DNA of 64,000 nt from Paenibacillus bovis (lineage in GTDB: Bacteria > Bacillota > Bacilli > Bacillales > Bacillaceae_C), in NCBI GenBank assembly GCA_007679095.1, contig VEFU01000001.1, positions 62,001-126,000 of the forward strand, given 5' to 3'. The notes under the pieces were generated by a model. That model was not told where the DNA came from. It worked only from the letters and a program-made list of their open reading frames with translations, and ran no database searches. Within the stretch, counting starts at the first letter, position 1. Every line of letters begins with the position of its first letter. Below are positions 32,290 through 35,514 of this stretch, in pieces. Made by a program: the position numbers and the translations under genes.

Positions 32290-33486
32290 ATGGGTCATTC
32301 GCTCGCGAAGGAAGCTCCTCTACAAGAAGAGAGTTCCGACCGAATATGGACAAAAGATTTCATACTAATAGTTATGTCCAATTTCTTTATTTTTCTCGGT
32401 TTTCAAATGACATTGCCAACGCTGCCACTTTTCGTTGAAAAACTTGGTGGCAATGATCAGCTTATCGGAATAGTCGTTGGAATTTTCACCTTCTCCGCGC
32501 TTTTAATTAGACCGTTTGCTGGTCATGCATTAGAAACAAAGGGTAGACGTTTTATATACTTAACTGGTTTAGGTATCTTTGTTTTGTCTGTGAGCTCATT
32601 TGGATTTGCTGCTAGTCTCATATTTTTATTTCTTATGAGGATTATTCAAGGAGTTGGTTGGGGCTTTTCCACAACAGCTTCAGGGACAATCGCTACAGAT
32701 CTCATCCCGGCAAAACGTCGTGGCGAAGGAATGGGCTATTACGGTTTATCGGGAAATTTAGCGTTAGCATTTGGACCTTCACTTGGTCTAGCTTTAATGG
32801 GGATTATTTCGTTTAAACAACTATTTATTATTGTAGGAATTCTTGGATTAACATCGTTATTATTAGCATCTAAAATCCGTTATAAACAAGTAGAGAAACG
32901 AACTATACCACATAAAAAGTGGGATGTATATGAAAAGTCAGCATTACCACCATCTATCCTACTATTTTTTATAACGGTTACATTTGGTGGAATTGCAACA
33001 TTTCTTCCTATTTACTCAGCGCAAAAAGGTGTAGATGGAATTGAGATATATTTTCTCCTATATGCACTAGCTTTAATGATTTCACGTACATTTGCTGGAA
33101 AAATTTACGACCAAAAAGGCCATCTATATGTATTTATACCAGGAACTTTGATGATATTTATATCGATGATGCTTTTATCATGGTTACCAAATAGCATGAC
33201 GCTTTTTGCAGCGGCGATATTGTATGGACTTGGCTTCGGAACGGTGCAACCAGCATTACAAGCTTGGTCTGTTAAAGATTCTCCGATGAACCGGCGTGGA
33301 ATGGCCAATGCCACATTTTTCTCCTTCTTTGATCTCGGGGTGGGAATTGGAGCAATACTTTTCGGTCAAATAGCCCACTCATTTGGCTACCATACGATTT
33401 ATGGCATATCTGCCCTATCTGTATGTATTTCCATGTTAATTTATATTTTTATCGTAATGAACGATAAATTTAAAAAAGCTACATAG
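32290..33486 (+). CDS. MFS transporter
   Basis: A 398-residue major facilitator with 12 hydrophobic segments between about 25 and 392. Motif A variant GHALETKGRRFIY follows TM2, and the antiporter-like GxxxGPxxG motif appears as LALAFGPSLGLAL in TM5. It is related to the Bacillus YfkF/YwoG-type drug efflux group. AAGGAGGAG lies eight bases before the ATG. It is monocistronic with a terminator, after which the 52-bp array begins. Substrate unknown. Confidence 0.92.
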   Translation: MGHSLAKEAPLQEESSDRIWTKDFILIVMSNFFIFLGFQMTLPTLPLFVEKLGGNDQLIGIVVGIFTFSALLIRPFAGHALETKGRRFIYLTGLGIFVLSVSSFGFAASLIFLFLMRIIQGVGWGFSTTASGTIATDLIPAKRRGEGMGYYGLSGNLALAFGPSLGLALMGIISFKQLFIIVGILGLTSLLLASKIRYKQVEKRTIPHKKWDVYEKSALPPSILLFFITVTFGGIATFLPIYSAQKGVDGIEIYFLLYALALMISRTFAGKIYDQKGHLYVFIPGTLMIFISMMLLSWLPNSMTLFAAAILYGLGFGTVQPALQAWSVKDSPMNRRGMANATFFSFFDLGVGIGAILFGQIAHSFGYHTIYGISALSVCISMLIYIFIVMNDKFKKAT

Positions 33487-33500
33487 TTTGAAGTAACCTG

Positions 33501-33533
33501 CCCTGAACATCAGATTCAGGGTATTTCTTTTTG
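33501..33533 (+). terminator. Terminator of the MFS gene
   Basis: CCCTGAA (33501-33507) pairs with TTCAGGG (33515-33521), then TATTTCTTTTTG. Confidence 0.8.
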
Positions 33534-33555: not shown

Positions 33556-34720
33556 TCTGACAGTTGGATTCTCACGACCTGTTAAAATCAACATTAGGGA
33601 TAAAATTGATGTGATAGAACTGCTCTTGACTGATTCTTCTGCATCATAAACTTGAATCGGTCGTGAGTGCTCTTCTCTCGACTTATTCATCTTCATTTTT
33701 AACACGAATCTGTCGTGATTGCTCCTCTCTCAACTGATTCCGCTCCATCTTTTATTCATAGCTGTCGTGATAACGGTTCTCTCGACTTATTCATCTTCAT
33801 CAACTACTTAAATCCGTCGTGACGGCTCCTCTCTCAACAGGTTGTGCACCATCTCATTCAAAAATGTCGTGAGAACGGTTCTCTCAACCATTCTCACTCC
33901 AACATCCACTTGAATCCGTCGTGACTGCTCTGCTCTCAACCGGTTCTGCACCATCTTTCATTCAAAAATGTCGTGATAACGGTTCTCTCAACCATTCTCA
34001 CCCCAACATCCGATTGAATCCGTCGTGACAATCACGCTCTCGACCGATTCATCTTCATTTTTAACACGAATCGGTCGTGAGTGCTCCTCTCTCAACTGAT
34101 TCCGCTCCATCTTTCATTCAAAGATGTCGTGATAACGGTTCTCTCAACCATTCTCACTCCAACATCCACTTGAATCTGTCGTGATAAACGTTCTCTCGAC
34201 TATTCTTACTTCATCATCAGCATAAATCCGTCGAGACAAACACGCTCTCGACTGATTCATCTTCATTTTTAACACGAATCTGTCGTGATTGCTCCTCTCT
34301 CAACTGATTCCGCTCCATCTTTCATTCAAAGATGTCGTGATAACGGTTCTCTCAACCATTCTCACTCCAACATCCACTTGAATCTGTCGTGATAAACGTT
34401 CTCTCGACTATTCTCACTTCATCATCAGCATAAAACCGTCGTGACAACCATGCTCTCGACCAGTTCATCTTCATTCTCAACACTTATCTGTCGTGACGGC
34501 TCCTCTCTCAACCAGTTCTGCTCCATCTTTTATTCAAAGCTGTTGTGAGAACGGTGCTCTCAACCATTCTCACTCCAACATCCACTTGAATCCGTCGCGA
34601 CAAACACGCTCTCGACCGATTCATCTTCATTTTCAACTCAATCCGTCATGACACCCATACTCTCCACCATCCCCTCTCCATCATCCACACAAATCTGTCC
34701 AGATCCCTCTCTCCAAATGA
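33556..34720. repeat. Tandem array of about 23 palindromic units with a strict 52-bp period
   Basis: Each unit has a 23-base core, consensus GTCGTGA-N9-TCTCRAC, flanked by GAATCC on the left and YGATTC on the right. In good units the palindrome arms thus reach about 13 bp. Cores start at 33556 and 33608 (degenerate), 33660, 33712, 33764, 33816, 33866, 33918, 33970, 34022, 34074, 34126, 34178, 34230, 34282, 34334, 34386, 34438, 34490, 34542, 34594, 34645 and 34697. All steps are 52 except 50 (to 33866) and 51 (to 34645). The 29-base linkers fall into a few recurring types. Units 34022-34229 and 34230-34437 are a near-exact 208-bp duplication. Stops occur in all frames, so it is non-coding. Confidence 0.95.
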
Positions 34721-34845: not shown

Positions 34846-35514
34846 TTGTATTATTCACCAGGATTTAGGACGAATGAAAATACGAATAAAAGAAGACGAA
34901 ATATTATTAGAGTGATCGGCGAAGGTTCCGTAACGGTACAACCTGATATAGCAAAAATAACACTAGGTGCTGCAACAGAAAATAAGGTGCTAGCAACAGC
35001 ACAACAGGAAAATGCTAACATTATTACAAATATCAAAAATGAATTAAGAAAAATTGGTATCCCCGAGGATAGCATGCAAACAATTGATTATTCCATTTAC
35101 CCTCTTTATGATTTTAGCGATGGTAAACAAGTATTCAGTAATTATAAAGTAGAACATGTTCTCCTCATCACCGCAGCAGATATTAATAATACTGGTCTTG
35201 TTGTCGATACTGCTGTCAATAATGGTGCCAATATTGTAAGAGGGATTACCTTCGACACTTCCGAATATAGCAAATACTATCAACAAGCACTTTCTTTAGC
35301 GGTGTTAAATGCTGGTCAAAAGGCTGAAACCATCGCCAACACATTAAAAGTTCCATTAATAAAGGAACCAACGTTAGTGGCAGAAAATACTCGTGAAAGT
35401 GGCGGTCCTATTCCTTTCCAACCAGTAGCGATGGTAAAGAGTGAAGCAAGTACACCAATCCAATCTAGTTCGATGGAAATTAAAAGTGAAGTAACAGCCG
35501 AATTTTCTTACTAA
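34846..35514 (+). CDS. SIMPL-domain (DUF541) protein
   Basis: A 222-residue protein starting at TTG (GAGGAG nine bases upstream). The SIMPL fold begins RVIGEGSVTVQPDIAKITLG and continues with IDYSIYPLYDF, VDTAVNNGAN and AETIANTLKV. No signal peptide, unlike many DUF541 members, so it is probably cytoplasmic. Homologues include E. coli YggE and bacterial Bp26; function is poorly defined (oxidative stress has been proposed). It lies just after the 52-bp array. Confidence 0.88.
   Translation: MYYSPGFRTNENTNKRRRNIIRVIGEGSVTVQPDIAKITLGAATENKVLATAQQENANIITNIKNELRKIGIPEDSMQTIDYSIYPLYDFSDGKQVFSNYKVEHVLLITAADINNTGLVVDTAVNNGANIVRGITFDTSEYSKYYQQALSLAVLNAGQKAETIANTLKVPLIKEPTLVAENTRESGGPIPFQPVAMVKSEASTPIQSSSMEIKSEVTAEFSY

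What the first reader, a model, noticed from the sequence alone, without database searches (positions are those of the whole stretch)
33556..34720. A 1.16-kb non-coding array of ~23 palindromic units at a strict 52-bp period
Seen directly: cores GTCGTGA-N9-TCTC[G/A]AC recur at 52-base steps 20 times out of 22 (one 50, one 51). Arms extend to about 13 bp in good units (GAATC-Y-GTCGTGA ... TCTCGAC-Y-GATTC). 52 bp equals five turns of B-DNA at 10.4 bp per turn, so all cores would face the same side of the helix. The linkers are not unique spacers but recurring types, and a four-unit block (208 bp) is duplicated. Unit 34542 changes both arms together (GTTGTGA...TCTCAAC), and the G/A variation in the right arm keeps pairing (G-U) if the minus strand is transcribed. 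I infer either a cooperative DNA-binding platform (nucleoid, segregation or replication protein) or a multi-hairpin RNA. I know of no named element like it.
Basis: partly seen in the sequence, partly recalled or inferred. Interest (0 to 1): 0.82.

Follow-up and report, generated by a model that had tools for sequence, protein, structure and literature searches.

The report
Replication-oriented 52-bp repeat arrays
Scattered through the chromosomes of some Bacillus relatives are strings of short near-palindromes set about five DNA turns apart and, in nearly all arrays checked, pointing the same way relative to DNA replication, which suggests a directional DNA-protein landmark rather than a gene or an RNA.

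Summary
The array is real: 21 cores at 33608-34667, 18 of 20 steps exactly 52 bp. It is not alone. The same genome holds 13 more arrays of this core; 851 kb of it also hold 13 other 51/52-bp arrays, 12 with other cores. One core (GGGCA-N17-TNACC) recurs at 51/52 bp in 16 of 34 family genomes and 28 of 199 order genomes. Deep linkers differ between arrays to chance level while cores and spacing stay fixed. The arms show no compensatory change within arrays, so a selected hairpin is not supported. The core strand is the G-poor, inferred lagging, strand in 57 of 59 arrays of two core families, 29 of 29 in two later tests; the six arrays whose two neighbour genes both run with the core follow the skew too. 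I read it as a five-turn-phased, polar binding platform for an unidentified dimeric DNA-binding protein. Protein and role are not shown. REP/BIME, CRISPR and RTP/Ter tests fail. Eight literature searches found no description.

The parts
33608..34667 (+). Array of 21 near-palindromic cores (GTCGTGA-N9-TCTCRAC, at most 3 mismatches) at 52-bp steps; core strand = + strand
33556..33578 (.). Decayed left-edge unit placed in register (6 mismatches on +, 3 on -)
34697..34719 (.). Decayed right-edge stretch placed in register by extrapolation (7 mismatches)
33969..34616 (+). Higher-order repeat: 208-bp (four-unit) block, 3.1 copies, 89% matches
33501..33533 (+). Terminator-like hairpin plus T run just before the array (CCCTGAA..TTCAGGG TATTTCTTTTT), so read-through from the upstream gene is unlikely
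   Evidence: read directly; inference
32290..33486 (+). Left neighbour: MFS transporter gene (Pfam MFS_1)
34846..35514 (+). Right neighbour: SIMPL-domain protein gene (Pfam SIMPL, unknown function); on the core strand, yet the array follows the replication strand

Best explanation
The array is a double-stranded-DNA binding platform. Each 52-bp unit carries one imperfect dyad of two half-sites, best explained as the site of a dimeric sequence-specific DNA-binding protein, joined by a linker that in several sets carries A/T tracts at a fixed place. Since 52 bp is five helical turns (at 10.4 bp per turn), all dyads face the same side of the helix and any linker bends add up, so a bound array should form a regular, possibly curved, nucleoprotein filament. 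The dyad is consistently asymmetric, so the filament has a direction, and that direction is fixed relative to the GC-skew strand in nearly all arrays of two core families. SHOWN here: the strict period, selection on cores and spacing but not on deep-linker sequence, no hairpin covariation within arrays, A/T tracts at fixed positions, strand polarity by skew, order-wide recurrence of one core. INFERRED: that a protein binds, that it is a dimer, that skew means replication direction, and that the array acts as a polar landmark or barrier for something moving with the fork (replisome, or an FtsK/SpoIIIE-type translocase). I put the DNA-binding platform at about 0.75, and the specific role in fork- or translocase-direction control at about 0.3.
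For: Spacing: 147 of 157 steps in 14 own-genome arrays are 52, the rest 104 x3, 51 x2, 103 x2, 102, 50, 53. Between 13 arrays, arms are 85% and 84% identical but the deep linker 28% against 27% expected from composition. Family A pairs: 1657 of 3060 Watson-Crick, within-array shuffles mean 1654.9, 442 of 1000 reach it. Family C inner pairs (72 distinct cores, 15 arrays): 247 of 432 against 244.9 within arrays (297 of 1000 reach it), but 0 of 1000 global shuffles reach it, i.e. the two half-sites change together between arrays and species, not unit by unit, as expected of one protein reading both. A/T tracts: family C peak at positions 36-40 (0.34-0.41 of units, 0.00 over the core, 14 arrays); A. 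sediminis family A at 35-42 (0.44-0.97, 4 arrays); G000 family A mainly at 24-28 and 46-50. Polarity: family A 13 of 14; family C/D in G000 7 of 7 and 13 of 13 in a test announced in the notebook beforehand; G011 7 of 8; G021 1 of 1; 16 of 16 in six other genomes. In all six arrays whose two neighbour genes both lie on the core strand (window, L009, L020 of family A; G011 L172, L203, L207 of family C) the array follows the skew (L207 only -0.014).
Against: No binding protein was found. Among genes within 5 kb of 43 arrays no gene recurs except a set of mutually similar proteins that I take for ABC-type ATPases and a few scattered pairs (identity not tested). Unrelated cores with different half-site spacing share one period, which one protein would not explain. 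Core families are absent from many close relatives (C pattern in 16 of 34; A pattern in 1 of 34), so the function is hardly essential housekeeping. Polarity rests on GC skew as a proxy; arrays of one family are related, so counts are not independent; in the 13 family C regions the right-hand neighbour, where known (11), always lies on the other strand, so there gene direction and skew cannot be told apart. With 5-kb instead of 20-kb flanks the family A count drops to 11 of 14. The antipodal A/T tract in G000 family A is weak (41 of 500 permutations reach it).
Confidence: 0.55

Rival explanations
1. Multi-hairpin non-coding RNA or ssDNA hairpin element: each unit folds and the stem-loop is what is selected.
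For: Units are near-palindromic, and one strand keeps G-U where the other has C-A. In one search the right-hand neighbour of family C arrays, where known (11 of 13), always reads towards the array on the other strand. Inner half-site bases of family C change together between arrays.
Against: No excess pairing over within-array shuffles in either family; three dyad positions are mismatched in 82-90% of units; arrays also in convergent and divergent gaps; no Rfam match at the arrays searched; a fixed 52-bp step is not needed by an RNA.
Confidence: 0.08
2. BIME-like topological element: the arrays are bound by gyrase or a nucleoid protein and absorb supercoils, spread by a REP-type (RAYT) transposase.
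For: Dispersed intergenic imperfect palindromes in clusters; few divergent gaps (4 of 38 with both neighbours known). A Y1/RAYT-like gene exists in the genome.
Against: The only intact Y1 gene found is flanked by GGTGCCTGGCACC palindromes, with no such array in its 13.7-kb contig. All units of an array are head-to-tail, an arrangement reported as absent or rare in REP families (passages of PMC3733652). Gyrase binding as such does not explain the polarity.
Confidence: 0.12
3. Neutral satellite DNA: arrays arise and grow by replication slippage in which one orientation is more prone to expand, and the period is just inherited.
For: Higher-order repeats and array-wise homogenisation, very variable copy number up to a 6.2-kb array of about 119 units, turnover of core families between species.
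Against: Arms stay 84-85% identical between arrays whose deep linkers are at chance identity, and few indels survive. Unrelated cores keep the same 51-52 bp. The same asymmetry and polarity hold in several families of the order (the asymmetry is partly built into the search pattern).
Confidence: 0.2
4. Defence by titration: chromosomal arrays act as decoys for replication or partition proteins of plasmids or phages.
For: Many motif families per genome with fast turnover; phased direct or inverted sites resemble iteron layouts (recalled).
Against: No blastn match of the window array (E up to 0.01) in 72,556 plasmids or 50,697 phages; no family A dimer and no TTTGTCC-type repeat in viral contigs; the four viral matches to the C pattern are three copies of a 51-bp repeat that reads like protein code and one lone chance-type match. 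It gives no reason for the polarity.
Confidence: 0.05

Closest known systems
REP / BIME elements (repetitive extragenic palindromes)
   Same: Short imperfect palindromes, dispersed in many intergenic regions, in clusters, lineage-specific.
   Different: Strict five-turn spacing, head-to-tail only, no covariation between arms within arrays, not found beside the RAYT-like gene, polarity with the skew strand.
Ter sites of the Bacillus subtilis RTP fork trap (recalled)
   Same: About 30-bp imperfect inverted repeat whose asymmetry gives direction; uniform direction relative to replication.
   Different: Tandem arrays of about 3 to 119 units at many places; the window's genome has no RTP match; other sequence.
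KOPS / SRS motifs read by FtsK / SpoIIIE (recalled)
   Same: Polar, skewed with replication, asymmetric.
   Different: Those are short single motifs, not phased dyad arrays.
Plasmid iterons and MIRU-VNTR minisatellites (recalled)
   Same: Tandem units; iterons are phased with the helix.
   Different: Iterons belong to replication origins; MIRU loci have no fixed common phase or polarity that I know of.
CRISPR arrays
   Same: Regular spacing, repeats with dyad symmetry.
   Different: Linkers recur and drift instead of being unique spacers; repeats vary; many arrays per genome.

Membership tests
REP/BIME | Palindrome kept as a hairpin (arms covary) | tested here: not met
   no excess pairing within arrays in families A and C
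REP/BIME | Paired head-to-head or tail-to-tail units, head-to-tail rare | tested here: not met
   units of each array on one strand; rule from passages of PMC3733652
REP/BIME | RAYT gene flanked by the element | tested here: not met
   single intact Y1 gene found is flanked by another palindrome
CRISPR | Near-identical repeats with unique spacers | tested here: not met
   linkers recur, cores vary
CRISPR | cas genes | not tested
   no search for cas genes was made
RTP/Ter fork trap | RTP protein present (PF02334) | tested here: not met
   0 matches in the window's genome; 11 of 34 family genomes over the cut-off; 2 of 11 RTP+ against 14 of 23 RTP- genomes have C arrays
RTP/Ter fork trap | Polar fork arrest | not testable with these tools
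   needs 2D gels or replication profiling
Structured ncRNA family | Match to an Rfam model | tested here: not met
   none in the window or at the arrays of 13 loci; the only 2 hits are a SAM and a PreQ1 riboswitch elsewhere in these loci
Protein-coding repeat | Open frame through the array | tested here: not met
   window: longest stop-free run 68 codons; 52 is not a multiple of 3. Some other arrays do hold or lie under ORFs (147 aa in L015; in 5 of 16 loci), not examined further
Phased protein-binding array | Sites at whole helical turns | tested here: met
   51/52-bp steps
Phased protein-binding array | A protein that binds | not testable with these tools
   no candidate found beside the arrays

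The most novel reading that the evidence does not exclude
An order-wide class of polar chromosomal landmarks in Bacillaceae-type bacteria: five-turn-phased arrays of asymmetric dyads that tell a moving machine (replisome or DNA translocase) which way it is going, with core sequence and cognate protein turning over together between lineages while period and polarity are kept.
Probability: 0.3. Interest if true: 0.92.

Novelty: categorically new. Interest (0 to 1): 0.8.

Why it matters
If right, these bacteria keep a genome-wide directional DNA code made of tandem arrays, which ORF-centred annotation passes over. It would supply a natural system of long, regular, possibly single-protein DNA filaments with built-in direction, make it testable how a period can be conserved while sequence turns over, and possibly show how a replication fork or translocase reads direction in lineages without RTP.

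Tried and rejected
RNA or ssDNA hairpin: not supported, on arm independence. RAYT/REP: rejected on flanks. RTP: absent from the window's genome; the negative association with C arrays (Fisher p = 0.03) is not used because the genomes are related. Plasmid or phage origin: no match. The four viral matches to the C pattern were looked at: L153, L154, L156 share a 51-bp repeat of another sequence that reads like protein code, L155 shows no array in the 200 bases printed. My first C pattern was one base too long (one hit, L152, not read) and was repeated correctly. I first believed that G008 has a 52-bp array in the same gap as the window; it lies between the SIMPL and ilvA genes instead, and no MFS match lies within the 1.5-kb flanks of SIMPL in the 11 relatives' loci. 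A generic palindrome score on array consensuses did not separate most arrays from shuffles and was dropped. No recurrent neighbour gene of note. Literature: 8 searches found no description of such arrays; only PMC open-licence papers are held. PMC2267715 and PMC3733652 were seen as found passages, all other papers only as listings with the start of the abstract. Tandem repeats that do not fit the phase: periods 118, 38, 55, 45 and 80 in G000, 279, 54 and 201 in G008, 152 in G001, 192 in G041, an unclear one in G011 (L165), and some repeats inside long ORFs. Samples with no tandem region over 90 bp: G002, G003, G023, G029 (60 kb each) and G019 (40 kb). Arrays not orientable and left out of the polarity count: the families without a fixed asymmetry and C22:5347. 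Of the places listed outside G000, 16 were fetched and tested; others listed (for example one more in G103, three more clusters in G199, all of G187, G120, G013) were not.

Full report
WHAT IS IN THE WINDOW. Between an MFS transporter gene (32290-33486, +) and a SIMPL-domain gene (34846-35514, +) lie 21 cores GTCGTGA-N9-TCTCRAC (at most 3 mismatches, 16 exact) from 33608 to 34667, all on the + strand. Of 20 steps 18 are 52 bp, one 50 and one 51. Two edge stretches placed by extrapolation (33556, 34697) are decayed units at best. Shuffled sequence never gives so many matches (0 of 100). A 208-bp higher-order repeat spans 33969-34616. No ORF of 60 aa or more lies inside, the longest stop-free run is 68 codons, and no Rfam family reaches its threshold in the window. 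A terminator-like hairpin with a T run stands after the upstream gene at 33501-33533 (read), so the array is probably not in that gene's transcript.

IT IS ONE OF MANY. The same core forms 14 arrays in this genome (window plus 13 loci), all at 52 bp apart from a few odd steps. The zero-mismatch cores listed for the genome all fall in these arrays (one 1-mismatch match lies outside). Of 157 steps 147 are exactly 52, three 104, two 51, two 103, one each 102, 50, 53. In 851,420 unique bases from 12 contigs of the genome, most chosen because they hold such an array, Tandem Repeats Finder gives 35 regions of over 110 bp; 27 have a 51/52-bp period: the 14 arrays, one near relative of the core (C22:5347), and 12 with other cores such as GGGCAC..GTGACC, TGTCCA..TGGACA and AACGGGAATC..GATTCCCGTT. 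Repeats of other cores at 51/52 bp or multiples are in G008, G012, G016 and G020, G021 and G041. Aquibacillus sediminis carries the window's core in four loci, Halobacillus locisalis in one locus with two good units. The window's core in dimer form is otherwise rare: 1 of 34 family genomes and 2 of 397 order genomes, own genome counted in both.

ONE CORE FAMILY IS ORDER-WIDE. Two copies of GGGCA-N17-TNACC at 51 or 52 bp occur in 16 of 34 family genomes (4 of 7 genera; reversed control pattern 0 in all 34) and in 28 of 199 genomes sampled from the order (15 of 97 genera; control positive in 1 of 199). In G011 an array reaches 6.2 kb, about 119 units.

SELECTION. Between the 13 own-genome family A arrays that entered the comparison (147 units), the arms are 85% and 84% identical and the deep linker 28%, against 27% expected from base composition; the flanks of the arms and the loop lie between (40-52%); within arrays the deep linker is 62% identical. 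So arrays are homogenised inside, cores are held in common, and the spacing is kept although the deep linker is not. That is the strongest argument that the five-turn step itself matters.

NOT A HAIRPIN. Over 180 distinct units from 19 arrays, Watson-Crick pairing across the dyad is 1657 of 3060, within-array shuffles average 1654.9 and 442 of 1000 reach the observed value; allowing G-U on either strand changes nothing. Three dyad positions are mismatched in 82-90% of units (mostly C.C, T.T, C.C on the core strand). Family C (72 distinct cores, 15 arrays of G000, G011, G021) gives the same within arrays (247 of 432 against 244.9), though several arrays vary little; between arrays and species the two half-sites do change together (0 of 1000 global shuffles reach it). 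This is what one dimeric protein with drifting specificity would leave, and a stem conserved only between arrays is not formally excluded.

DNA SHAPE. In family C, A/T tracts cover 34-41% of units at positions 36-40, half a period from the dyad at 13, and 0% over the core (means over 14 arrays). In A. sediminis family A arrays the tract sits at 35-42 with the dyad at 11 (0.44 to 0.97, 4 arrays). In G000 family A tracts lie mainly at 24-28 and 46-50; the antipodal one is weak (41 of 500 permutations reach it). Tracts 11 bp apart would make curved linkers; curvature was not computed.

POLARITY. Leading strands are taken as G-rich, the usual rule in Firmicutes (recalled). With 20-kb flanks the family A core strand is the G-poor one in 13 of 14 arrays; the exception is C110:247125 (L013), and two are weak, C420 and C522:191. 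With 5-kb flanks it is 11 of 14. For family C/D the GGGCA strand is G-poor in 7 of 7 first-found arrays. I noted the prediction and tested the 13 further places that one search listed for G000: 13 of 13. Then 16 arrays in six other genomes, with short flanks: 16 of 16, one at only -0.014. Of 8 arrays seen in G011 7 agree; the array at 97.5 kb is the exception, and for the one at 1.87 Mb the skew was read from a sample about 80 kb away. G021 gives 1 of 1. Sum: 57 of 59 (binomial p about 6e-15 if independent, which related arrays are not). Do genes set it? In 38 arrays with both neighbours known, genes are co-directional in 23, convergent in 11 and divergent in 4 (simple ORF calls). In the family C regions the right-hand neighbour, where known (11 of 13), always lies on the other strand, so there genes and skew agree and cannot be separated. 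In the six arrays where both neighbours lie on the core strand (window, L009, L020, L172, L203, L207) the array follows the skew. The opposite kind of asymmetry in families A (pyrimidine pairs) and C (G.A, partly built into the pattern) on the same strand argues against a mere mutational origin.

WHAT IT IS NOT. REP/BIME: arms do not covary within arrays, all units of an array are head-to-tail, and the only intact Y1/RAYT-like gene found (L082:6381-7046) is flanked by GGTGCCTGGCACC palindromes. RTP/Ter: no RTP match in this genome. CRISPR: linkers recur and drift. Plasmid or phage: no match; the four viral matches to the C pattern are not such arrays. Known RNA: none at the arrays searched.

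HOW IT PROBABLY WORKS. A dimeric protein binds each dyad; five-turn spacing puts all dimers on one face; the asymmetric dyad and, where present, bent linkers make a polar filament; polarity is matched to replication, so the likely reader is the fork or a DNA translocase. Only the DNA-side facts are shown. The main puzzle left is why unrelated cores with different half-site spacing share one period: either a protein family with changing specificity, or a common partner or amplification process with a 52-bp ruler. A neutral satellite with orientation-dependent growth remains the best rival (0.2).

NOVELTY. Eight literature searches found nothing comparable. REP/BIME, CRISPR and RTP/Ter each lack a defining feature here; KOPS, iterons and MIRU were compared from memory only. 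Hence 'categorically new', with the reservation that the library is partial and that phased binding-site arrays as such are known.

LIMITS. Skew is a proxy; genomes are drafts or unnamed samples; no proteome-wide profile, transcript or binding data; array counts come from stretches partly chosen for holding arrays; some relatives' samples (40-60 kb) held no array at all; not every listed array was tested for polarity. No clade without such arrays was run through the same repeat finder as a period control.

Noticed in passing
G000 C11:16979-17318, C22:3880-4331, C522:38583-39231; also samples of G008, G011, G021, G041, G057, G176: A second class of tandem arrays with a 20-21-bp (two-turn) step and multiples (41, 61, 82, 103, 124). 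In G000 the CTCGCGAT motif lies on the G-rich strand in 3 of 3 arrays; an ATTCT-type array (C110:201221) lies on the G-poor strand.
   Followed up: partly
L042:11901-12179 in G008; L073:1695-2240 in G000: A motif like GAACGGGAAT is used as a direct repeat at about 20.6 bp in G008 and as an inverted pair at 52 bp in G000, as if one binding specificity served both layouts.
   Followed up: no
L082:6200-7160: RAYT-like Y1 transposase gene flanked by GGTGCCTGGCACC palindromes, a separate REP-like family; a repeat with the same palindrome at L184:19210-19307.
   Followed up: partly
34 family genomes: RTP genes and family C arrays tend to exclude each other (2 of 11 RTP+ against 14 of 23 RTP- genomes have C arrays), possibly only through common descent.
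   Followed up: no
L019:2913-3017 and L009:1247-1293: SAM riboswitch and PreQ1 riboswitch in the loci of two family A arrays, ordinary.
   Followed up: no
L024:3867-4130 (Aquibacillus sediminis): Another array at 52/104 bp with a different core (AAACGTGCACAT..) about 3.6 kb from a family A array.
   Followed up: no
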